Of a stretch of DNA of 15,558 nt, positions 6,530-15,558 are shown in pieces. A program made the position numbers and the translations under genes. The notes beneath the pieces were generated by a model. That model did not search any database. It had not been told where the DNA came from and worked only from the letters and a program-made list of their open reading frames with translations. Position 1 is the stretch's first letter. Each line of letters starts with the position of its first letter. This DNA is from JADFSZ01 sp022560555 [NCBI: PVC group bacterium] (GTDB lineage Bacteria; GCA-001730085; JADFSZ01), in NCBI GenBank assembly GCA_022560555.1, contig JADFSZ010000017.1:1-15558 (forward strand), given 5' to 3'.

Positions 6530-6537
6530 AATTGTTT

Positions 6538-7539
6538 ATGCCAAAAGACTTAAATGTAACTATACTTGGTGCAGGGAGTTGGGGAACAACTTTGGCTGTT
6601 CATTTAGATCGCAAAGGTTGTTCGGTAAAGTTGTGGGAAGCTTTTGACGATTACGCGCAAATTCTTATTGAAACACGTGTAAATGAAAAATATTTGCCGA
6701 ACACTACCATAGCCCCAAACATTGAGATTACTTCGGTGCTCGAGAATGTTATTCCTGAAGCTGATGTTATTGTTGTTGCGATTCCGACTCAATATGTTCG
6801 AAATGTTTTTACGAGCGTAAAGGAAAAGTTTGATTCGATTAAGGCGATGATTGTTAGTGTGTCCAAGGGGATTGAGGTCAAAAGCCTTAAGAGGATTTCT
6901 GAGATGACGAGCGAATTTTATCCGGATCTCGACTTTGTTGTTCTTTCAGGGCCGAGTCATGCGGAAGAAGTTAGTCGTAGAATTCCGACAAGTGTTGTGG
7001 CTGCGTCCAAAAATCAGGAGGCGGCCAAGATTGTTCAAGAACTGTTTATGGATGATTACTTCCGGGTTTATACCAATAAGGATGTTGTTGGTGTAGAACT
7101 AGGCGGAAGCTTAAAAAACGTGATTGCTTTGGCATGCGGCATTTCTGATGGGTTAGGATTTGGGGACAATTCCAGGGCCGCTCTCATCACAAGGGGCCTA
7201 GCCGAGATGACCCGGCTGGCTGGCGCCCTCGGTGCGGATCGAAAAACTTTGTCAGGCTTAGCCGGCGTCGGAGACCTCATTGTAACTTGTAACAGTGAAC
7301 ATAGTCGAAACAGGAGAGTCGGCCGCGCTATTGGAGAGGGCAAAACATTAACAGATATTTTGACGCACATGAACATGATCGCTGAAGGGGTTGAAACATC
7401 AAAATCGGTCAAGCGTTTGGGCGAAAAATTGGGTGTAGAAATGCCTATTTGCGAACAAGTGTATCAGGTTTTATTTAATCATAAGGACCCGCATATTGCC
7501 GTGCGTGAGTTGATGTTAAGGGATCCAAAGGAAGAGTAA
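6538..7539 (+). CDS. gpsA: NAD(P)+-dependent glycerol-3-phosphate dehydrogenase
   Basis: This cytoplasmic enzyme reduces dihydroxyacetone phosphate to sn-glycerol 3-phosphate for phospholipid synthesis. The 333-residue length matches the family. The N-terminal Rossmann motif is GAGSWG at 11-16. Further landmarks are VVLSGPSHAEEV, the block GGSLKNVIALACGISDGLGFGDN with catalytic lysine K193, and LAGVGDLIVTC towards the C-terminus. ATG 6538 is preferred over an in-frame TTG at 6532, because the promoter's -10 ends at 6529 and a transcript would begin near the ATG. The spacer to tRNA-Pro is 65 nt and filled with heptad repeats. The small membrane gene lies upstream in the same direction. Nothing is missing from the active site. 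Confidence 0.96.
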   Translation: MPKDLNVTILGAGSWGTTLAVHLDRKGCSVKLWEAFDDYAQILIETRVNEKYLPNTTIAPNIEITSVLENVIPEADVIVVAIPTQYVRNVFTSVKEKFDSIKAMIVSVSKGIEVKSLKRISEMTSEFYPDLDFVVLSGPSHAEEVSRRIPTSVVAASKNQEAAKIVQELFMDDYFRVYTNKDVVGVELGGSLKNVIALACGISDGLGFGDNSRAALITRGLAEMTRLAGALGADRKTLSGLAGVGDLIVTCNSEHSRNRRVGRAIGEGKTLTDILTHMNMIAEGVETSKSVKRLGEKLGVEMPICEQVYQVLFNHKDPHIAVRELMLRDPKEE

Positions 7540-7541
7540 AG

Positions 7542-7595
7542 CAAGTTTCAAAGTCTCCGGTTTCCAGTTTTTGATCAAAGCTTGTAACTGGAAAC
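7542..7595 (+). repeat. Heptad repeat with inverted copy, gpsA/tRNA spacer
   Basis: Four 7-nt units follow the gpsA stop without interruption: CAAGTTT (7542), CAAAGTC (7549), TCCGGTT (7556), TCCAGTT (7563). The last returns inverted as AACTGGA at 7586-7592. The inverted pair is embedded in a perfect 10-bp stem, GTTTCCAGTT (7560-7569) with AACTGGAAAC (7586-7595), around a 16-nt loop that itself contains the palindrome TTTGATCAAA. It could end gpsA transcripts, but no T tract follows directly. Confidence 0.6.
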
Positions 7596-7604
7596 GATGT
7601 TTTC

Positions 7605-7678
7605 CGGGGCGTAGCGCAGCTTGGTAGCGCGCACCCTTGGGGTGGGTGAGGTCGCTGGTTCAAATCCAGTCGTCCCGA
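7605..7678 (+). tRNA. tRNA-Pro, anticodon GGG
   Basis: A 74-nt cloverleaf can be built in full. The acceptor stem CGGGGCG (7605-7611) pairs with CGTCCCG (7671-7677) with one G-T, and the discriminator A is at 7678. The D stem is GCGC/GCGC, and the anticodon stem CACCC/GGGTG holds loop TTGGGGT with anticodon GGG at 7639-7641. The T arm is GCTGG-TTCAAAT-CCAGT. The variable loop has 5 nt. A first C pairing with G is typical of bacterial tRNA-Pro. The 3' CCA is not encoded, so a CCA-adding enzyme must finish it. It reads CCC and CCU codons. It lies inside a gpsA-hom run on the same strand, with no convincing promoter of its own. Confidence 0.97.
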
Positions 7679-7685
7679 TATTTTA

Positions 7686-7713
7686 AGTCCAGAGTGTTGA
7701 GTTCGGAGTAAAA
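7686..7713 (+). repeat. Heptad repeat, tRNA/hom spacer
   Basis: Four head-to-tail 7-nt units share AGT at their first three positions: AGTCCAG, AGTGTTG, AGTTCGG, AGTAAAA, starting at 7686, 7693, 7700 and 7707. The last four positions drift. The array starts 8 nt after the tRNA and ends 16 nt before the hom start. Confidence 0.55.
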
Positions 7714-7729
7714 ACAAAGTGAGAGAACC

Positions 7730-9016
7730 ATGGAAGAAATTAAAATAGGGCTTTTAGGCTTAGGCACGGTCGGAAAAGGGGTCGTTAAACTCCTTGAGCA
7801 GAGCGCGACTGTTATTGAGCAACGCTTAGGCAAAAAGATCGTCTTAAAGAAAGTCGCGATTAAAGATCTTAAAAAAGAGCGTGACGTGTTTTTGCCCGAA
7901 GGAGTTTTAACGGATCAGGCCGAAGACGTTGTGAATGATCCGGAAATATCGATCGTTATTGAATTGATTGGGGGGACAGACGCTGCTAAGAAACTCACTC
8001 TCAAGGCTCTCAAAAATAAAAAGCATGTTGTAACGGCTAATAAAGCGCTCATCGCGGAAGAAGGTGACGTGGTTATTAAGACCGCTCTGGATCATAAGGT
8101 CGCTTATATGTTTGAGGCGAGTGTTGGCGGAGGAATCCCCATATTGAGATCTCTGAGGGATGGGTTGGTTGCCAACCGGACAGAATCTATTTATGGAATT
8201 ATTAATGGGACGGCAAATTATATTTTGTCGAAAATGTCAGACGAGGGAATTGAATTTGATCAGGCCTTGAAAGAGGCGAAAGAAAAAGGGTATGCTGAAG
8301 CGGATCCCAGCCTCGATATAGATGGGATTGATTCGGCGCATAAGCTCAAAATTTTGACACTTCTCGGATTTGGACTTAAAGTAAATATGAATGATATCTT
8401 CGTTCAGGGTATTCGAAATATTACCTTAAGCGATATCGTTTATGCTGAAGAATTAGGCTACAAAATAAAGTTGTTAGCGATCGCTAAAGAGATTGGCGTG
8501 GAAATAGAAGTCCGGGTGCATCCGACCTTGATTCCCGAGGATCATCTGCTTGCGGCCGTGAATGATGTGTATAACGCGATTTGCGTGACCGGGAACGCTG
8601 CCGGACAAAATATCTTTTTGGGATTAGGTGCCGGAGATATGCCGACAGCAAGCGCGGTATTAAGTGATGTGATAGAAATCGCTCGTGATCCCACGCGGAG
8701 TTTTCATGAGCATATGCCAATGGTGAATACACTCAAGTCTATTCGCAAAATTGACGAAGTGATCTCGAAATATTATATTCGATTGTCAGTCGTTGATCAG
8801 CCCGGAGTATTATCCGGAATTGCCAATATTTTAGGTGAGCACAATATCAGCATTGCGTCCGTCATTCAAAAAGAACGTAATGTGGGGGATACGGTTCCGC
8901 TGATTATGATGACGCATGAGGCCAAGGAACACGAAATTTGCCAAGCCATGGACGTGATTGACCGCTTACCGGTTGTTGATCGCAAAAGCATGGTTATTCG
9001 GGTCGAAATGATCTAG
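7730..9016 (+). CDS. hom: Homoserine dehydrogenase with C-terminal ACT domain
   Basis: Reduces aspartate semialdehyde to homoserine, the branch step towards threonine and methionine. The 428 residues match the monofunctional bacterial form. The N-terminal NAD(P) motif is GLLGLGTVGKGV. VVTANKALIA follows, then the catalytic block EADPSLDIDGIDSAHKLKIL with K205 as the expected catalytic lysine. The last ~80 residues (from about 345, IRLSVVDQPGVLSGIANILG) are an ACT domain, so feedback inhibition, usually by threonine, is likely. ATG 7730 is preceded only by a weak GAGAGAA. It is the first protein gene after tRNA-Pro and is followed 44 nt later by thrC, clearly a threonine-pathway group. No key residue is missing. 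Confidence 0.96.
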   Translation: MEEIKIGLLGLGTVGKGVVKLLEQSATVIEQRLGKKIVLKKVAIKDLKKERDVFLPEGVLTDQAEDVVNDPEISIVIELIGGTDAAKKLTLKALKNKKHVVTANKALIAEEGDVVIKTALDHKVAYMFEASVGGGIPILRSLRDGLVANRTESIYGIINGTANYILSKMSDEGIEFDQALKEAKEKGYAEADPSLDIDGIDSAHKLKILTLLGFGLKVNMNDIFVQGIRNITLSDIVYAEELGYKIKLLAIAKEIGVEIEVRVHPTLIPEDHLLAAVNDVYNAICVTGNAAGQNIFLGLGAGDMPTASAVLSDVIEIARDPTRSFHEHMPMVNTLKSIRKIDEVISKYYIRLSVVDQPGVLSGIANILGEHNISIASVIQKERNVGDTVPLIMMTHEAKEHEICQAMDVIDRLPVVDRKSMVIRVEMI

Positions 9017-9022
9017 AGACCG

Positions 9023-9064
9023 TAATTTGTAAATCATAAATTGTAAATAGTAAGTGGGTAATGG
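9023..9064 (+). repeat. Heptad repeat running into the thrC start codon
   Basis: Five clean 7-nt units start at 9023: TAATTTG, TAAATCA, TAAATTG, TAAATAG, TAAGTGG. They are followed by GTAATGG (9058) and TAATGAA (9065). The array fills nearly the whole spacer after hom, and its last units supply two in-frame ATG codons (9061 and 9067). The GTGGG at 9054-9058 is the only Shine-Dalgarno-like stretch and lies within the array. Confidence 0.6.
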
Positions 9065-10122
9065 TAATGAAAAAAGGAATTATACACACATACCGGGAAT
9101 ATTTACCGGTGACAGATCAAACACCCGTAATATCGCTGCAAGAGGGGGGGACTCCCTTGATTCACGCGAAAAACTTGAGTGCTCAGCTAAAATCTCCCTT
9201 GTCGGTATATCTCAAATGTGAGGGGATGAATCCGTCAGGATCATTTAAAGATCGCGGGATGACGCTGGCTGTATCTAAAGCGCTCGAGAAGGGAGCCAAG
9301 GCTGTGATGTGTGCGTCTACAGGGAATACATCGGCATCAGCCGCGGCATATGCCGCGAAATCAGGCATAAAGTGTGTGGTGATTATTCCGGAGGGAAATA
9401 TCGCTTTAGGGAAATTGTCGCAAGCTCTCGTTCATGGGGCGCAAGTCATTTCCATTAAGGGCAACTTTGACGATGCTTTACGGATTGCCCGGGAAGTTAC
9501 CGGAGGGTTTCCTATTGAATTGGTCAATTCAATTAATCCGTATCGCATTGAAGGGCAAAAAACCGGAGCATTTGAAATCTGTGATCAATTGGGGAAAGCA
9601 CCGGATTATCATGTTTTACCGGTAGGAAACGCCGGCAATATTACGGCTTATTGGAAGGGATATAAAGAGTATCGTGACAAAGGACGTATTAAAGAATTGC
9701 CTGTCATGCTGGGATTCCAATCGGCGGGAGCGGCTCCGATCGTGTTGGGTAAAGTTGTAAAAAACCCCCGGACCATTGCAACGGCGATTCGTATCGGGAA
9801 CCCTGCCGGTTGGAAACAGGCCGAAGAGGCCCGGGATGAATCAAAAGGATTGATTGATTCCGTAACGGATGATGAAATTATTGAAGCATACAAATTATTA
9901 GCAAAGTCAGAAGGTGTGTTTTGTGAACCGGCATCAGCCGCCGCGGTTGCCGGAATAATCAAGAAAGATCGTGAGGGCTATTTCGGTAGTGAACGTAAAA
10001 CGGCTGTGGCTGTTCTGACGGGACATGGATTGAAAGATCCCGATCGCGCGATAGGAGTATCCGAATTACCGGTAAGTCTCGCCGCGAATGTGGAGACGAT
10101 AGCGCAAGCGATCGGTTTTTAA
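9061..10122 (+). CDS. thrC: Threonine synthase (PLP enzyme)
   Basis: Converts O-phosphohomoserine to threonine and phosphate. The 353-residue length fits the short bacterial threonine synthase class. The pyridoxal-phosphate lysine is K63 in [11 protein letters not shown], and the phosphate-binding loop follows in [15 protein letters not shown]. The Gly-rich [15 protein letters not shown] and the C-terminal [13 protein letters not shown] are standard. ATG 9061 is taken as the start, but ATG 9067 two codons later is equally possible, as it is better spaced (8 nt) from GTGGG at 9054-9058. The enzyme needs phosphohomoserine, yet no classical homoserine kinase is visible. The gene immediately downstream is the candidate for that step. 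Confidence 0.96.
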
Positions 10123-10134
10123 AATCAATTATTT

Positions 10135-10140
10135 AAGGAG
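10135..10140 (+). promoter_or_regulatory. Shine-Dalgarno of the mutase-like gene
   Basis: AAGGAG ends 8 nt before ATG 10149, the best ribosome site among the threonine-cluster gene starts (one internal site in lysC is stronger). This is the only spacer from gpsA to valS longer than 20 nt without a short repeat. Confidence 0.8.
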
Positions 10141-10148
10141 TACGGGTT

Positions 10149-11360
10149 ATGAAATATGTGGTTGTCGTACCGGATGGAATGGCAGATCATCCCTTAGAGG
10201 AGTTTGATAACAAGACGCCGTTAGAAATCGCGCGGACGCCGAATATGGATCGTTTAGCGGCCGATGGAATTGTCGGACGCGTGAAGACTGTTCCTGACGC
10301 CTTGGAGCCGGGAAGTGACGTGGCCAATTTATCGATATTGGGATATGATCCGTTAAAATATTATTCAGGGCGCGGGCCGCTGGAAGCGGCCAGTATGGGA
10401 ATCTTTCTCGGGGATGAGGATGTGGCTTTTCGATGCAACTTTGTCACGACTTCTGACGATAAGTTAACAGATTACAGCGCGGGACATATTTCGACCCCGG
10501 AAGCCGAGAAATTGATAGATGTTCTGAATCAACATCTTTCCAATGCTGGCCTCAAGTTTTATCCCGGAGTCGGATACCGCCATTTGATGGTGATGAATGA
10601 CCCCGATGGGATGTTTGAGGTCAAGTCTGTAAAAAGTTATCCTCCGCACAACCATATGGGGAAAAATATCCGGAAGTTGTTCTCGAGATCTAAAGGCGGG
10701 AAAATAATTCGTGATATTGTTTTGAAATCACGCGAAATTCTTGATGGGCACGAAATCAACGCCACGCGAATTGATTTGGGGGAAAACCCCGCGAATCTTA
10801 TTTGGCTTTGGGGTCAGGGAAAAAAACCCGCCATGCCGCTTTTTTACAAAAAGTATGGTGTGAATGGAGCTGTGATTTCTGCCGTTGATCTGATTAAGGG
10901 AATCGCGAAGTGTATTGGATTGACGTCCATTGATGTTCCGGGAGCCACGGGATATTATGATACGGATTACGCGGCTAAAGCGAGCTATGGCATTGAATCT
11001 CTCAAAGAAAACGATTTTCTTTTTTTGCATATTGAAGCGCCGGATGAGGCCGGACATAACGGAGATTTGCAGGCAAAGATCACCGCTATCGAAAATATTG
11101 ATTCGAAGATTTTAGGTCCGCTTCTTAAGGCGCTTGATAAACACGGAGAATATCGGATTGTTGTATTGCCGGATCATCCTACACCGGTCATGCTTAGATG
11201 CCATACGCATGAGCCTGTGCCCTTTGTGCTTTACGGAACGGATTTTGAATCAAACGGGATAGGTGTTTACAGTGAAAAAGCGTCCGAAAAAAGTTTCCAG
11301 AACTATGAATCCGGTCCGGAACTATTGATGGCATTGTTTGGAAAAATAAAGAAGCCGTAA
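10149..11360 (+). CDS. Archaeal-type cofactor-independent phosphoglycerate mutase family; probable homoserine kinase
   Basis: A 403-residue alkaline-phosphatase-superfamily protein of the ApgM type. Expected two-metal site residues are visible: D9 in VVPDGMAD, S56 in EPGSDVANLSILGYDP, D299/H303 in PDEAGHNGD, D342/H343 in LPDHPTP and H354 in HTHEP. General annotation would be 2,3-bisphosphoglycerate-independent phosphoglycerate mutase. However, a bacterial subgroup of this family found beside threonine genes is annotated in TIGRFAMs as a proposed homoserine kinase (TIGR02535). This copy sits exactly between thrC and lysC, next to hom, where thrB is absent. I infer homoserine phosphorylation as its main role. 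The sequence alone cannot tell kinase from mutase. It is preceded by a good ribosome site and followed by lysC after 24 nt. Confidence 0.88.
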   Translation: MKYVVVVPDGMADHPLEEFDNKTPLEIARTPNMDRLAADGIVGRVKTVPDALEPGSDVANLSILGYDPLKYYSGRGPLEAASMGIFLGDEDVAFRCNFVTTSDDKLTDYSAGHISTPEAEKLIDVLNQHLSNAGLKFYPGVGYRHLMVMNDPDGMFEVKSVKSYPPHNHMGKNIRKLFSRSKGGKIIRDIVLKSREILDGHEINATRIDLGENPANLIWLWGQGKKPAMPLFYKKYGVNGAVISAVDLIKGIAKCIGLTSIDVPGATGYYDTDYAAKASYGIESLKENDFLFLHIEAPDEAGHNGDLQAKITAIENIDSKILGPLLKALDKHGEYRIVVLPDHPTPVMLRCHTHEPVPFVLYGTDFESNGIGVYSEKASEKSFQNYESGPELLMALFGKIKKP

Positions 11361-11377
11361 ATTTACGAATTACAGGT
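11357..11377 (+). repeat. Possible short heptad repeat, apgM-like/lysC spacer
   Basis: GTAAATT (11357), TACGAAT (11364) and TACAGGT (11371) line up at 7-nt spacing, with TA in common and overlap with the preceding stop codon. Three degenerate units are weak evidence alone. They are listed because four other spacers in this window show the same period. Confidence 0.3.
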
Positions 11378-11384
11378 TTTTGAA

Positions 11385-12605
11385 ATGAGTTTAATTGTTC
11401 AAAAATACGGAGGGACATCTGTTGGTACTGCCGACAGGATCAAGGCTGTTGCGAAGAGAATCGTTGAGACGAAAGAGCAAGGACATGATGTGATTGTTGT
11501 TGTGTCAGCGATGGGAAAAACGACGGATCAATTGATCTCTTTAGCCAAACAGATTACGGAGTATCCAAACCCGAGAGAAATGGATATGCTCTTATCCACC
11601 GGAGAGCAGATCTCAATCTCTTTGTTAGCGATGGCTCTGCATGATTTGGGACAAAAGGCCACGTCGCTGACAGGAGCGCAAATCGGACTTTTGACAGATA
11701 ATGTTCACACAAAGGCTAAAATTGTGGGAATGAAACCGGATAAGATTATCCAATTACTTGAACAAGGCCACATTATTATTGTCGCCGGATTTCAGGGGAT
11801 GACACCCGACTTTGATGTTACAACTTTGGGTCGAGGTGGGTCGGATACTTCGGCTGTTGCTGTTGCGTCAATTCTCAAAGCCGAGAGATGTGTGATCTAT
11901 ACAGATGTTGACGGAATTTATACGGCCGATCCCCGATATGTTCCCAAAGCCCGAAAATTAAAAATGATTTCGTACGGAGAAATGCTGGAACTTGCGAGTT
12001 TGGGCGCAAAAGTGATGAGTTCACGCTCCATTGAATTTGGCAAAAAATACGGTGTGCCCATTGTTGTCCGGTCGAGTTTTAATGACGAAGACGGGACTGT
12101 AATCACCGAGGAGGGAGAACGTATGGAAGACGTTGTTGTAACAGGAGTTGCACTGGACAAAGATGAAGCAAAAATAACGATTCAGCAGGTTTCGGATCAG
12201 CCGGGTATCGCGGCCCGGATTTTTAGAGTTTTGGCGGATGAAGGCATTAATATTGATATGATTGTACAGAACATCAGTGATAAGGGGCTAACGGATGTGT
12301 CGTTTACGACACCTGTAGCTGAGCTTAAAAAGGCTATTTCTGTCTCTGAGAAAATCGTGAAAGATATTGGGGCCAGCCGTGTGGTTTCTAACGACAAAAT
12401 CGCGAAGTTGTCCGTGATTGGTGCCGGTATGCGGAGTCATCCCGGTGTGGCCGCCGATATGTTTGAAGCTTTGGCTGAGGAAAAAATTAATATTGAAATG
12501 ATCACGACATCCGAGATACGGATTTCCTGTGTGATATCCGAGGAAGATGCCGAACGGGCGGCACGGGCCGTTCATACTAAATTTAAACTGGACCGTGAAG
12601 GATAA
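11385..12605 (+). CDS. lysC: Aspartate kinase, alpha subunit with two ACT domains
   Basis: Phosphorylates aspartate, the first step to lysine, threonine and methionine. The 406 residues match the Bacillus/Corynebacterium-type enzyme. The N-terminal substrate motif is KYGGTSVG (7-14). STGEQISISLLA, the TTLGRGGSDTSAVAVA block and YTDVDGIYTADPR (ATP/catalytic region) follow. Two ACT domains start near 263 (ITIQQVSDQPGIAARIFRVL) and near 344 (KLSVIGAGMRSHPGVAADMF) and form the effector site for lysine and/or threonine. ATG 11385 has only a weak AGG upstream. A perfect internal ribosome site and ATG at 12123 should give a separate regulatory subunit. It lies 24 nt after the mutase-like gene and 112 nt before cimA. 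Confidence 0.97.
   Translation: MSLIVQKYGGTSVGTADRIKAVAKRIVETKEQGHDVIVVVSAMGKTTDQLISLAKQITEYPNPREMDMLLSTGEQISISLLAMALHDLGQKATSLTGAQIGLLTDNVHTKAKIVGMKPDKIIQLLEQGHIIIVAGFQGMTPDFDVTTLGRGGSDTSAVAVASILKAERCVIYTDVDGIYTADPRYVPKARKLKMISYGEMLELASLGAKVMSSRSIEFGKKYGVPIVVRSSFNDEDGTVITEEGERMEDVVVTGVALDKDEAKITIQQVSDQPGIAARIFRVLADEGINIDMIVQNISDKGLTDVSFTTPVAELKKAISVSEKIVKDIGASRVVSNDKIAKLSVIGAGMRSHPGVAADMFEALAEEKINIEMITTSEIRISCVISEEDAERAARAVHTKFKLDREG
12109..12114 (+). promoter_or_regulatory. Internal Shine-Dalgarno for aspartate kinase beta subunit
   Basis: A full-consensus AGGAGG lies inside lysC, 8 nt before the in-frame ATG at 12123. It is stronger than the site in front of lysC itself. Codons here read E-E-G-E-R-M, which do not require this exact sequence. 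Confidence 0.7.
12123..12605 (+). CDS. lysC: Aspartate kinase beta subunit (internal in-frame start)
   Basis: In-frame ATG at codon 247 of lysC with a perfect AGGAGG at 8-nt spacing would give a 160-residue product (MEDVVVTGVALDKDEAKITI...) made only of the two ACT domains. Bacillus subtilis aspartokinase II and Corynebacterium glutamicum LysC are known alpha2beta2 enzymes whose beta subunit is made from just such an internal start at nearly the same place, giving about 160-172 residues. The position and the local sequence after the methionine fit that arrangement. The beta chain would bind the feedback amino acid with the alpha chain. The site is seen directly; actual use is inferred. Confidence 0.7.
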   Translation: MEDVVVTGVALDKDEAKITIQQVSDQPGIAARIFRVLADEGINIDMIVQNISDKGLTDVSFTTPVAELKKAISVSEKIVKDIGASRVVSNDKIAKLSVIGAGMRSHPGVAADMFEALAEEKINIEMITTSEIRISCVISEEDAERAARAVHTKFKLDREG

Positions 12606-12610
12606 AATGC

Positions 12611-12702
12611 ATTTTTAGTGAAGATATTTTTTAATGAAAAATATTTTCAATGAAACAATAGTTTTAATGAGAAAATAGTTTTAGTGAAATTTTTTTTAAT
12701 AA
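12611..12702 (+). repeat. Six imperfect 16-17 nt AT-rich repeats, lysC/cimA spacer
   Basis: Six copies of a unit close to TTTTAATGAAAAATA are marked by A(A/G)TGA or AATAA at 12617, 12633, 12649, 12666, 12683 and 12698 (spacings 16, 16, 17, 17, 15). The region is almost entirely A and T, and contains a small inverted repeat TGAAAA-ATA-TTTTCA (12635-12649). It fills the 112-nt gap before cimA. No convincing promoter or terminator was found in it. This spacer differs from the 7-nt period seen elsewhere. Confidence 0.65.
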
Positions 12703-12717
12703 ACACGGAAACATTAT

Positions 12718-14277
12718 ATGAGAACCATCAAGATCTATGACACAACTCTGAGAGACGGCACACAGGCGGAAGGGGTATCTTTATCGCTTCTTGATAAAAT
12801 TGCCATCACGAAAAAACTTGATGAAATCGGTATTCATTATATTGAAGGCGGGTGGCCTGGATCTAATCCGAAAGACATTGCGTATTTTAAAGAGGTCCAA
12901 AAACTCAAATTGAAAAATTCTTTGATTGCCGCGTTTGGCAGTACGCATCGGGCAAGTGTGAAAGTTGAAGAAGAGCAGAATATGAGGGCTCTCATTGAGG
13001 CCAATACGCCTGTGATCACGATTTTCGGCAAAACCTGGGATCTTCATGTACGGGTAGTGCTTCGGATAAGTGATGATAAAAATCTCGAAATCATTCATAA
13101 TTCCGTAAAATTTCTTAAGAAGAAAAAGAAAGAAGTTATTTATGACGCTGAGCATTTTTTTGACGGATATAAAACGAATCCCGAATATGCCTTAAAAACG
13201 CTTGGGGCCGCTTTGGAGGGAGGAGCCGACTGGCTTGTGCTGTGTGACACAAACGGCGGGACTTTGGTCGGAGAATTGCAGAAAATCGTGCGTGAGGTCA
13301 GAAAAACGTTTGACTGTAAGCTGGGTATTCACACGCACAATGACAGCGGTGTCGGTGTTGCTAACGCGATCGCAGCGATTGATGAAGGCTGCAATCAGGT
13401 CCAGGGGACGATTAATGGGATCGGAGAACGCTGCGGAAACGCGAATCTTTGCTCTATTGTCCCGAATATTAAGTTAAAGCTGAAGCTCAACTGTCTGACA
13501 TCACCGCAATTAAAAAAATTGTACGATTTATCCCATTATGTTAACGAGCTTGCGAATCTAATCCCGGACGAACGGCAGCCGTATATTGGCGCGAGTGCGT
13601 TTGCTCACAAAGGAGGGATGCATGTCAACGCCGTTGAGAAAGATGCGGCGACATTTGAGCATATTCCCCCTGAATTGGTTGGGAATAAAAGAAGAATTCT
13701 TTTATCAGAATTGGCGGGGAAGAGTAATGTGATTTTGATCGCGCGCCAGCTGGGTATTGAGCTGAAGGATAATGACAAAGTTTATAAGGACGTTCTTAAG
13801 CGCATTAAGGAACTGGAAAATGAGGGTTACGAGTTTGAAGGAGCCGAGGCTTCATTTAAACTTCTCGTGAAAAAAGCGATGGGGAAATACAAACCGCTTT
13901 TTCGATCGGCAGGATTTCGTGTGGTTGTAGAAAAAAAAGAAGACGGATGTCTGATCAGTGAAGCTACAGTTAAAATCATTATTAAAGATAAAGAAATCCT
14001 TATGACGGCTGAAGGAGACGGTCCCGTGAACGCGCTTGATACGGCTCTTCGCAAAGCGTTGCGGGGACATTACCCCGAGATCTCTAAGGTACATCTCAAG
14101 GACTACAAGGTCCGTGTGCTGGATGCCAAGGAGGGTACGGCGGCGAAAGTCCGTGTGCATATCGAATCCGGTGATCAGCACGACAACTGGAATACGGTGG
14201 GTGTATCCGAAAATATTATCGAAGCGAGTTGGTGGGCTTTGGTTGATAGTATTGAATACAAACTTCTGAAAGATTAA
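12718..14277 (+). CDS. cimA: (R)-citramalate synthase
   Basis: Condenses pyruvate with acetyl-CoA to citramalate, the first step of the threonine-independent route to 2-oxobutyrate and isoleucine. Length is 519 residues. The DRE-TIM start is YDTTLRDGTQAEG, and the metal-binding HTHND is at 205-209 with GERCGNANL following. GGWPGSNPKD and FGKTWDLHV are features that separate CimA from 2-isopropylmalate synthase and homocitrate synthase. FAHKGGMHVNAV is also present. The C-terminal ~140 residues form the LeuA-type dimer/regulatory domain, so isoleucine feedback is likely. ATG 12718 has no clear Shine-Dalgarno (only GGAA). It ends 132 nt before valS. The enzyme is complete. Confidence 0.95.
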   Translation: MRTIKIYDTTLRDGTQAEGVSLSLLDKIAITKKLDEIGIHYIEGGWPGSNPKDIAYFKEVQKLKLKNSLIAAFGSTHRASVKVEEEQNMRALIEANTPVITIFGKTWDLHVRVVLRISDDKNLEIIHNSVKFLKKKKKEVIYDAEHFFDGYKTNPEYALKTLGAALEGGADWLVLCDTNGGTLVGELQKIVREVRKTFDCKLGIHTHNDSGVGVANAIAAIDEGCNQVQGTINGIGERCGNANLCSIVPNIKLKLKLNCLTSPQLKKLYDLSHYVNELANLIPDERQPYIGASAFAHKGGMHVNAVEKDAATFEHIPPELVGNKRRILLSELAGKSNVILIARQLGIELKDNDKVYKDVLKRIKELENEGYEFEGAEASFKLLVKKAMGKYKPLFRSAGFRVVVEKKEDGCLISEATVKIIIKDKEILMTAEGDGPVNALDTALRKALRGHYPEISKVHLKDYKVRVLDAKEGTAAKVRVHIESGDQHDNWNTVGVSENIIEASWWALVDSIEYKLLKD

Positions 14278-14283
14278 CATAAA

Positions 14284-14353
14284 AATGACGAATGTCAAAA
14301 TCCGAATGACAAATCAAAAATGATAAACGTCAAAATACCAATGATAAATGGTT
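14284..14353 (+). repeat. Ten-unit heptad repeat, cimA/valS spacer
   Basis: Ten consecutive 7-nt units run without a single slip from 14284, 7 nt after the cimA stop: AATGACG, AATGTCA, AAATCCG, AATGACA, AATCAAA, AATGATA, AACGTCA, AAATACC, AATGATA, AATGGTT. The consensus is about AATGACA. A higher-order copy is also visible: units 2-4 (14291-14311) and 7-9 (14326-14346) match at 17 of 21 positions. Confidence 0.75.
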
Positions 14354-14365
14354 TAATACACGCAC

Positions 14366-14393
14366 TTTGTCATTAGTCATTTGAGCTTTGTCA
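14366..14393 (-). repeat. Four inverted heptads facing the ten-unit array
   Basis: Read on the - strand the units are TGACAAA, GCTCAAA, TGACTAA, TGACAAA, again exactly 7 nt each and the same word (AATGACA rotated) as the + strand array. TTTGTCATT at 14366-14374 pairs perfectly with AATGACAAA at 14305-14313. The two arrays together can fold into one large imperfect hairpin before valS. Confidence 0.65.
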
Positions 14394-14409: not shown

Positions 14410-15558
14410 ATGGAACTTTCTAAAAGATACAATCCCAAGGACGTTGAAGAAAAATGGTATCAGTATTGGGACGAAAACAATTTTTTTCAACCCAAAGATG
14501 ATCCTAAGGCTCCGACGTATACGATTGTCATCCCTCCTCCGAATATCACGGGTGTGCTTCATATGGGACACGCCCTCAACAATACCATCCAGGATGTTCT
14601 TATCCGTTTTAAGCGTATGCAAGGATTCCGGACGCTGTGGATTCCGGGAACGGATCACGCCGGTATTGCCACGCAGAATATGGTAGAGAAGAGCCTTCAT
14701 AAAAAAAATAAAAAGCGGACCGATTATTCACAGGAAGAATTTATCAATCTTATTTGGGAATGGAAAGAAAAACACGGCAACACTATTATCGGTCAATTGA
14801 AGAAACTGGGATGTTCCTGTGATTGGAGCCGCGAACGTTTTACGATGGATGAACGTTTGAGTTATGCCGTTTTTGAATCATTTAAACGGCTTTATGATAA
14901 GGGGCTTATTTATCAGGGTGAATATATCATTAATTGGTGTCCCAGGTGCCGGACGGCGTTATCGGACGAAGAAGCCGAAAAACAAGAGCAGGATGGGGTT
15001 CTCTATTATATTCGGTATCCGATCATAGATTCAGATGAAAGTCTTGTTGTCGCGACAACGCGTCCCGAGACCATGCTGGGAGATACGGCTGTAGCGGTCA
15101 ATCCGAAGGACAAGAGATACAAGAAATATATCGGCAAAAATATTAAACTGCCGCTGACAGATCGGGTCATTCCGATCATAGCGGATGAGTTTGTGGATCC
15201 TGGTTTTGGGACCGGAGCCGTAAAAGTAACTCCCGCACATGATCCGAATGATTTTCAAATGGGCCAAAAGCACTCCTTAGAATTTGTGGTCATTATGGAT
15301 GAGCTCGCGGTGATGAATAAGGAAGCCGGGAAAAAATATGAGGGGATGGACCGCTTCAAATGCCGCAAGCAGGTGATCCAGGATTTGCAAAAGCAGGCTC
15401 TGTTTGTGGAAAAAAAACCTCACAGGCATGCTGTGGGGCGGTGCTACCGGTGCGAAACGATTGTAGAACCGTACATTTCGAATCAATGGTTTGTCAAAAT
15501 GGAGCCTCTGGCCCGTGCCGCGATCAAGGTCGTTGAAGAAGGAAAAATCAAATTTTAC
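14410..15558 (+). CDS. valS: Valyl-tRNA synthetase, N-terminal part (3'-partial)
   Basis: Charges tRNA-Val with valine. The frame from ATG 14410 stays open to the window end, giving 383 codons out of the roughly 850-950 usual for ValRS. The class I signature HMGH is at 51-54 in PPPNITGVLHMGHALN. DHAGIATQ, WCPRCRTALSDEE and the editing-domain motif VATTRPETMLGDTAVAVNP, with TPAHDPNDFQMG, follow in order. The KMSKS loop and anticodon domain lie beyond the window. An in-frame GTG at 14401 is an alternative start, but the family begins near MELSKRYNP. Only a weak GTGGG precedes the ATG. No T-box leader is visible; the spacer is taken up by heptad repeats. Confidence 0.96.
   Translation, partial: MELSKRYNPKDVEEKWYQYWDENNFFQPKDDPKAPTYTIVIPPPNITGVLHMGHALNNTIQDVLIRFKRMQGFRTLWIPGTDHAGIATQNMVEKSLHKKNKKRTDYSQEEFINLIWEWKEKHGNTIIGQLKKLGCSCDWSRERFTMDERLSYAVFESFKRLYDKGLIYQGEYIINWCPRCRTALSDEEAEKQEQDGVLYYIRYPIIDSDESLVVATTRPETMLGDTAVAVNPKDKRYKKYIGKNIKLPLTDRVIPIIADEFVDPGFGTGAVKVTPAHDPNDFQMGQKHSLEFVVIMDELAVMNKEAGKKYEGMDRFKCRKQVIQDLQKQALFVEKKPHRHAVGRCYRCETIVEPYISNQWFVKMEPLARAAIKVVEEGKIKFY

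What the first reader, a model, noticed from the sequence alone, without database searches (positions are those of the whole stretch)
7542..14393. Intergenic spacers built from degenerate 7-nt repeats, each with its own word
Four spacers of one gene run, plus a weak fifth, show the same strict 7-nt period with different words: CAAGTTT/TCCAGTT after gpsA (7542-7569), AGTnnnG before hom (7686-7713), TAAATTG before thrC (9023-9057), weakly TACGAAT before lysC (11357-11377) and AATGACA before valS (14284-14353). A fixed period with a changing word suggests a common generating or maintaining process, not copies of one mobile repeat. Heptameric short tandem repeats are known in cyanobacteria, but there one word is spread through the genome. 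The repeats flank genes closely without entering coding sequence, except at thrC and at the mutase-like gene's stop codon.
Basis: partly seen in the sequence, partly recalled or inferred. Interest (0 to 1): 0.65.

Follow-up and report, generated by a model that had tools for sequence, protein, structure and literature searches.

The report
Seven-base repeat hairpins between genes
Some gaps between genes in this uncultured bacterium are filled with worn seven-base tandem repeats, in part as two mirror-image arms that could fold together; this is a sharper form of a known but poorly explained habit of bacterial DNA.

Summary
The 7-nt period is real and occurs across the genome. In a sample of the window's own genome, 21 of 336 spacers carry a strong local lag-7 array; dinucleotide shuffles give 0.4, lags 3-6 and 8-13 give 0-4. 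In the window, the gpsA, thrC and valS spacers are individually significant; hom is weak and lysC is not significant.

"Each with its own word" is not right. The thrC and gpsA arrays match words found at many other places of the genome; hom does so only at the mismatch limit; for AATGACA (valS) no excess was shown.

Similar arrays occur in uncultured bacteria of several phyla, but no excess was seen in the one same-phylum genome sampled or in 12 NZ_ records. Two close relatives differ by one 7-nt unit at one array and by a whole hairpin at another junction.

Best reading: 7-nt slippage plus local inverted copying, probably mostly neutral. New variant of a known kind.

The parts
6532..7539 (+). 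gpsA, NAD-dependent glycerol-3-phosphate dehydrogenase
   Evidence: Pfam PF07479, PF01210
7552..7596 (.). AGTTTCC-type heptad hairpin: arm 7552-7567 (+, 2 mismatches), arm 7581-7596 (-, 3 mismatches)
   Evidence: lag-7 p 0.007, fold z -1.4; facing word pair
7605..7678 (+). tRNA-Pro (GGG) between gpsA and hom
   Evidence: ARAGORN
7692..7709 (+). weak AGTTCGG-type heptads before hom
   Evidence: lag-7 p 0.12; 7693-7708 matches the AGTTCGG word with 3 mismatches, the limit used
7730..9016 (+). hom, homoserine dehydrogenase with ACT domain
   Evidence: Pfam PF00742, PF03447, PF01842
9022..9053 (+). GTAAATN heptad array before thrC, one arm only
   Evidence: lag-7 score 13, 0 of 300 shuffles; two hits of the genome-wide GTAAATS word with 2 mismatches each
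9061..10122 (+). thrC, threonine synthase-like PLP enzyme
10149..11360 (+). 2,3-bisphosphoglycerate-independent phosphoglycerate mutase-like gene
   Evidence: Pfam PF10143, PF01676
11356..11367 (.). 12-bp perfect palindrome containing the mutase stop codon; GTAAAT facing ATTTAC
   Evidence: read directly from the sequence; lag-7 not significant here
11385..12605 (+). lysC, aspartate kinase
   Evidence: Pfam PF00696 and ACT domains
12612..12687 (.). separate repeat class, period 17 nt
   Evidence: TRF 5.6 copies of a 17-nt unit at 12611-12700; lag-17 score 27
12718..14277 (+). cimA-like, LeuA/citramalate synthase family
   Evidence: Pfam PF00682, PF08502; gene name is inference
14284..14334 (+). 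AATGACA heptad array, 5' arm of the valS-spacer hairpin
   Evidence: lag-7 p 0.003
14366..14390 (+). TTTGTCA heptads, 3' arm complementary to the AATGACA array
   Evidence: array score 8 with the inverted word; spacer fold z -2.5
14410..15558 (+). valS-like class I aminoacyl-tRNA synthetase (cut by window end)
   Evidence: Pfam PF00133

Best explanation
These are heptanucleotide tandem repeats of the kind known from cyanobacteria, Xanthomonas and Beggiatoaceae. Arrays arise and change length in spacers by slipped-strand replication in steps of 7 nt; such loops are larger than bacterial MutS repairs. Some arrays are doubled into hairpins by local inverted copying (the two arms of one spacer match each other better than arrays at other loci), and a small set of words has come to occupy many spacers of the genome. 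Point mutation then blurs units that stay in register. Location at gene junctions mainly reflects where such growth is tolerated; some hairpins may incidentally act on mRNA. Shown: the period, recurrence of words, paired arms in a minority of elements with fixed facing orientation, and, in one pair of close relatives of another lineage, a 7-nt length difference and a present/absent hairpin. Inferred: slippage as the source, inverted copying, near-neutrality, and why 7 rather than 6 or 8.
For: Own genome: 21 of 336 unbiased spacers with lag-7 score >=12, shuffles 0.4, lags 3-6 and 8-13 0-4; 6 of 490 called ORFs (528,801 nt) carry such an array, 5 of them at the called 5' end. 80 named loci: lag 7 in 27 of 518 spacers, next lag 14 (15) and lag 9 (13). 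Close relatives L070/L071 (96.8% identity over 2,477 nt, lower elsewhere): in an otherwise nearly identical spacer one has three CAGCCTN units and the other two, and after cimA one has a 203-nt spacer with a heptad hairpin where the other has about 25 nt. Arms: inverted words at rotation distance <=1 in 8 of 46 within-spacer pairs against 4.7% of between-spacer pairs (own genome), 5 of 50 against 2.2% (named loci); 13 of 40 array elements fold with z below -2, none above +2 (30 shuffles each). Literature: heptamers are over-represented among bacterial SSRs and a link to the polymerase's DNA footprint has been proposed (PMC4692102, passages, citing a 2007 paper that I take to be one not held); unit 7 has raised medians in five phyla, more than any other long unit (PMC4060949, section 9 part 1); E. 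coli MutS repairs loops up to four nt, and 7-nt loops are not repaired by mismatch repair in S. pombe (PMC5427490, passages).
Against: Simple slippage does not predict that the same words recur at dozens of places or that arms always face each other; in several arrays units alternate between two variants. The pooled spacer autocorrelation does not single out lag 7 (lag 9 is higher). Sharing of unit order between loci is only marginal: 44 array pairs with a common stretch >=14 nt, unit-shuffled mean 26.7, maximum 46 in 40 trials, which neither proves nor excludes copying between loci. Facing pairs of one word are a minority: 10 of 49 clusters in the fetched stretches. Only one pair of close relatives was available, and not from the window's lineage. 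The one same-phylum genome sampled (175 kb) shows 3 of 90 spacers at >=12 against 1.1 in shuffles and none at >=14, so the process is sporadic for an unknown reason. Two Y1 transposase genes of other array-bearing genomes do have heptad arrays beside them, which favours the mobile rival; I moved 0.02 to it after checking this.
Confidence: 0.53

Rival explanations
1. Selected RNA or DNA elements: heptad hairpins are intercistronic mRNA structures, or arrays of binding sites for a protein that contacts nucleic acid every 7 nt; words are shared because one reader recognises them.
For: A few words recur across the genome; some arms are complementary; orientation within a word family is fixed, 18 of 18 two-strand clusters counted by eye, 10 of 10 by script on fetched stretches; array spacers lie mostly between co-directional genes, 29 of the 34 with both neighbours called.
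Against: The co-directional excess is not significant (29 of 34 against 237 of 326 overall, Fisher p 0.10). A facing pair reads the same on either strand, so it does not follow transcription. 27 of 40 elements do not fold with z below -2. A whole hairpin is missing in a close relative. Word against gene function was not tested.
Confidence: 0.22
2. Small non-autonomous mobile hairpins (REPIN- or MITE-like) spread by a transposase such as the Y1 HUH enzymes present in the genome.
For: Dispersed words, hairpins with fixed facing orientation, presence/absence at one junction between close relatives. Y1_Tnp matches in 8 of 8 genomes searched, 3 in the window's genome. In G061 a lag-7 array of score 14 lies directly before a Y1 gene (L229), and in G062 one of score 10 lies beside another (L226).
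Against: None of the three Y1 genes of the window's genome has a heptad array (score >=7) in the flanking spacers read; one of them is at a contig edge with only 54 nt read, which hold a short piece resembling the ACTGGAA word. G061 and G062 were searched because they carry arrays, so neighbours may be chance. The same-phylum genome without excess has short Y1 matches too. No element ends or target duplication were established.
Confidence: 0.15
3. Loss of mismatch repair lets the repeats grow.
For: mutS of the window's genome is split into two overlapping frames; no MutS_I match in array-bearing G060.
Against: MutS_I found in 7 of 8 genomes; array-bearing G040, G059, G061, G062 have open frames of 889-908 aa. 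The split could be an assembly error. 7-nt loops are outside the reported range of MutS anyway.
Confidence: 0.04
4. Telomerase-like or retron-like reverse transcription of short templates writes the heptads.
For: Would explain a fixed unit length with varying words (inference only).
Against: RVT_1 found in 3 of 8 genomes (G061, G062, G063), not in G000, G001, G040, G059, G060, although G000, G040, G059 and G060 carry arrays.
Confidence: 0.02

Closest known systems
Cyanobacterial tandem heptanucleotides (STRR; Calothrix, Nostoc, Microcystis)
   Same: 7-nt unit, intergenic, several words per genome; Microcystis mixes words
   Different: Here units are more degenerate and some words form facing arms; cyanobacterial details known to me only from the passages and from recall (the name STRR is recalled)
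TAACTGA direct repeats of Beggiatoaceae (PMC4679880)
   Same: Intergenic heptads, sporadic across phyla, indels mostly in 7-nt increments between two Cyanothece strains
   Different: One exact word, related heptamers rarely repeated; 169 direct sets and one indirect in the BOGUAY genome, mostly just before start codons
GGGAATC repeats of Xanthomonas (PMC4692102)
   Same: Heptamers with five well-conserved positions, intergenic, length variable between relatives, some inverted pairs in convergent orientation
   Different: One G-rich word able to form quadruplexes; the words here are not G-rich
Phase-variable heptanucleotide repeats (HMW1A of Haemophilus, neuO of E. coli K1; seen only in the listing)
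   Same: 7-nt tandem unit
   Different: Tied to single phase-variable genes; here dispersed, degenerate, in spacers of housekeeping genes
REP / REPIN / BIME elements (recalled; listing)
   Same: Dispersed extragenic hairpins
   Different: REPs have one conserved sequence and no 7-nt tandem structure; link to a transposase gene not established here

Membership tests
Heptanucleotide tandem repeats (long SSR, unit 7) | Period 7 in excess over neighbouring periods | tested here: met
   As local arrays; in the pooled autocorrelation lag 9 is higher than lag 7
Heptanucleotide tandem repeats (long SSR, unit 7) | Mostly intergenic | tested here: met
   21 of 336 spacers (65.5 kb) against 6 of 490 ORFs (529 kb), 5 of these at the called 5' end
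Heptanucleotide tandem repeats (long SSR, unit 7) | Length variation in steps of one unit between relatives | tested here: met
   One case in one pair of close relatives, not of the window's lineage
Single-word heptad family (TAACTGA type) | One conserved word, others rarely repeated | tested here: not met
   At least GTAAATS, AGTTCGG, AGTTTCC in one genome
REP/REPIN element moved by a RAYT | Transposase gene flanked by the element | tested here: inconclusive
   Not at the three Y1 loci of the window's genome (one at a contig edge); arrays beside a Y1 gene in L229 and L226 of two other genomes
REP/REPIN element moved by a RAYT | Conserved element sequence with defined ends | tested here: inconclusive
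   Words shared, unit order only marginally; no ends defined
Protein-binding direct-repeat operators (SARP type) | Binding by a regulator | not testable with these tools
   no binding data

The most novel reading that the evidence does not exclude
The genome keeps a small lexicon of heptad words, built in part into facing (word, loop, complement) hairpins, because a dedicated DNA- or RNA-acting machine reads and rewrites spacers in a 7-nt register; the same machine works with other words in unrelated uncultured phyla.
Probability: 0.1. Interest if true: 0.75.

Novelty: new variant of a known kind. Interest (0 to 1): 0.42.

Why it matters
Why bacterial long simple repeats prefer a unit of exactly 7 has, in the papers seen here, a proposed but not a tested answer. 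Genomes that carry several words in one fixed period, some in facing hairpins, next to a same-phylum genome without an excess, give a comparison for finding what sets the number 7. It also warns that spacer motifs in such genomes should not be taken for regulator sites on sight.

Tried and rejected
Orthologous comparison inside the window's own lineage: not possible. Among 59 genomes offered as relatives (the window's own among them) one was of the same phylum; in the 175 kb of it read, lag-7 arrays are not in clear excess. Genus searches around three array-bearing genomes returned only themselves; for two of these the tool says it tells no kinship, so this is not proof of absence. The one usable pair came from the named loci; that they are congeneric would be a guess from identity.

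Y1 transposases beside arrays: none at the three loci of the window's genome, two cases in other genomes. Reverse transcriptases: no RVT_1 match in the window's genome. Mismatch-repair loss: MutS_I in 7 of 8, mutS split in the window's genome. Viral contigs with thrC: nothing. Literature: the typed word strings and two phrases gave 21 papers; the word strings hit only papers that by title are eukaryotic, the phrases also bacterial phase-variation papers; further searches. Recurrence of AATGACA (10 against 10) was uninformative because its reversed control resembles another word of this genome.

Sampling choices: the window, L010-L016 and L179 were left out of the counts called unbiased, because seven contigs had been chosen for an AATGACA match and the window for the finding; 12 of 100 fetched stretches were wholly masked and dropped. 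Genes were called by a longest-ORF rule (at least 80 aa), so short genes and tRNAs count as spacer and some array sequence counts as ORF. The count of 18 clusters was made by eye from printed tables (opposite strands within 300 nt); the script confirms the 10 that lie in fetched stretches.
Full report
OBSERVATION. The window is contig 156 of a 1.66-Mb, 222-contig genome and carries gpsA, tRNA-Pro, hom, thrC, a phosphoglycerate mutase-like gene, lysC, a cimA-like gene and valS, all on one strand (some gene names are context, the families are Pfam). Against 300 dinucleotide shuffles of each spacer, lag 7 is significant before tRNA-Pro (p 0.007), before thrC (0 of 300) and before valS (0.003); before hom it is weak (0.12) and before lysC not significant (0.107) (no correction for the 7 spacers and 9 lags). 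Among the other lags from 4 to 12 the lowest value is 0.023, lag 4 in the 26-nt thrC-mutase gap.

GENOME-WIDE. From 89 unmasked stretches (748,949 nt, window included) I took 390 spacers; 336 of these (65,513 nt) come from stretches not chosen for a repeat. Local arrays were scored +1 per lag match and -1 per mismatch. At score 12 or more lag 7 has 21 spacers; lags 3, 4, 5, 6, 8, 9, 10, 11, 12, 13 have 1, 0, 0, 1, 2, 2, 1, 0, 4, 1; lag 14 has 12, lag 21 has 4; shuffles give 0.4 at lag 7. Lag 17 has 7, a different repeat (see noticed in passing). Of 490 called ORFs of at least 150 aa (528,801 nt) 6 carry a lag-7 array of score 12 or more; lags 5 and 8 give 0 and 1, so there is an excess there too, but 5 of the 6 lie within 21 nt of the called 5' end, where the longest-ORF rule probably runs into the spacer.

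RESULT AGAINST. Few spacers carry arrays, so the pooled figure is diluted.

WORDS. A 15-mer of the thrC-type word occurs exactly at 12 places and at 85 with up to 2 mismatches (reversed control 16); AGTTCGG 63 against 11 and AGTTTCC 37 against 13, each 16 nt at up to 3 mismatches. The window's arrays are in those tables with 2 mismatches (thrC, two hits), 3 (hom) and 2 and 3 (gpsA). Words can grade into one another in register, for instance GTAAATG into ACAAATG in L016. Array words at different loci of the genome are identical up to rotation in 1.4% of direct and 0.8% of inverted pairs, random spacer heptamers 0.1%. Pairs of arrays sharing a stretch of 14 nt or more number 44; dinucleotide shuffles give 0.2, but shuffling the order of units gives 26.7 (maximum 46 in 40 trials), so word sharing is clear and sharing of unit order is not proven.

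HAIRPINS. In the window the AATGACA array before valS is followed by TTTGTCA heptads, its complement, at 14366-14390; the spacer folds with z -2.5. Within one spacer, inverted word pairs at distance 0-1 are 8 of 46 against 4.7% between spacers; direct pairs are 3 of 46 against 5.1%. In named loci the inverted figure is 5 of 50 against 2.2%, the direct 2 of 50 against 2.2%. Of 40 array elements folded (15 own, 25 named; 30 shuffles each), 13 have z below -2 and none above +2. For three word families, wherever one word lies on both strands within 300 nt the arms face each other: 10 of 10, 5 of 5 and 3 of 3, counted by eye; a script on the fetched stretches gives 4 of 4, 4 of 4 and 2 of 2, out of 21, 22 and 6 clusters in all, so one-strand clusters are the majority. 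A facing pair looks the same from either strand, so this is not set by transcription.

ELSEWHERE. In 80 named loci brought in by the cimA-like protein, lag-7 arrays at score 12 or more occur in 27 of 518 spacers, lag 14 in 15, lag 9 in 13, lag 8 in 5, lag 6 in 3. They lie in 15 loci, whose titles include Omnitrophota, Nitrospirota, Deltaproteobacteria, Verrucomicrobia, Elusimicrobia, Clostridia and FCPU426. All 27 are in the 68 non-NZ records; the 12 NZ records (105 spacers, few phyla) have none, and the same-phylum genome has 3 of 90 against 1.1 in shuffles. One word, CAGTGAA, is abundant in two of five array-bearing genomes: 61 hits against 6 and 37 against 1 for the reversed control; in the other three it is not clearly so (0 against 8, 5 against 6, 16 against 9).

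TURNOVER. L070 and L071 share 96.8% identity over 2,477 nt ending just past cimA, 81-95% in other blocks. In a nearly identical spacer L070 has three CAGCCTN units where L071 has two, a 7-nt difference. After cimA L070 has a 203-nt spacer with a heptad hairpin, L071 about 25 nt. This is one pair only, and other spacers of the pair also carry unrelated indels.

MECHANISM. I favour slippage in 7-nt steps plus local inverted copying. That heptamers are over-represented among bacterial SSRs, and a proposed link to the polymerase footprint, are in PMC4692102 (passages). PMC4060949 (section 9 part 1) gives raised phylum medians for unit 7 in Bacteroidetes, Chloroflexi, Verrucomicrobia, Deferribacteres and Planctomycetes, and zero in the other 18 groups of its table. 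PMC5427490 (passages) states that E. coli MutS handles loops up to four nt and that S. pombe heptanucleotide loops are not repaired by mismatch repair. None of this explains the fixed facing of arms or the shared lexicon; those are the open points. Reverse transcriptase and loss of mutS did not give a general cause. A transposase neighbour was not found in the window's genome, but arrays do lie beside a Y1 gene in L229 (score 14) and L226 (score 10); on checking this I moved 0.02 of confidence from the best reading to the mobile rival.

KNOWN OR NEW. Several words per genome (Calothrix, Microcystis), inverted pairs (Xanthomonas) and 7-nt indels (Cyanothece) are each in print. What I did not find in the passages read or in the listings of searches is facing heptad hairpins of fixed orientation with several words in one genome, or their spread in uncultured phyla. 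The searched library lacks most subscription journals.

Noticed in passing
window 12612-12687; L015 12269-12330; L033 468-557; L180 4419-4478; L187 262-331 and 8696-8759; L197 5304-5389; L206 3731-3782: A second degenerate tandem repeat class with period 16-18 nt (A+T-rich units) sits in gene junctions, e.g. lysC-cimA in the window; by eye the units look related between loci.
   Followed up: partly
L009 6106-8759: mutS of the window's genome is split into two overlapping frames of 184 and 710 aa; mutL downstream is one frame of 598 aa. Could be real or an assembly error.
   Followed up: partly
L083 1319-1690: In a Thermodesulfovibrionia contig two similar CAGTGAA hairpins flank one small ORF (78 aa) just upstream of a threonine synthase-like ORF (named by resemblance, not scanned).
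   Followed up: no
window 11356-11367: The mutase stop codon lies inside a 12-bp perfect palindrome made of the GTAAAT word facing its complement, perhaps a minimal facing pair.
   Followed up: no
G063:C29:3141-3231; G000 C101, C114, C135, C138: Units alternate between two variants in several arrays, giving a 14-nt super-period.
   Followed up: no
L229 1226-1467; L226 815-1022: Heptad arrays (scores 14 and 10) lie beside Y1 transposase genes in two other genomes.
   Followed up: no
L070 2640-2915 versus L071 2190-2315: Another spacer of the two close relatives differs by about 150 nt of unrelated, partly palindromic sequence.
   Followed up: no
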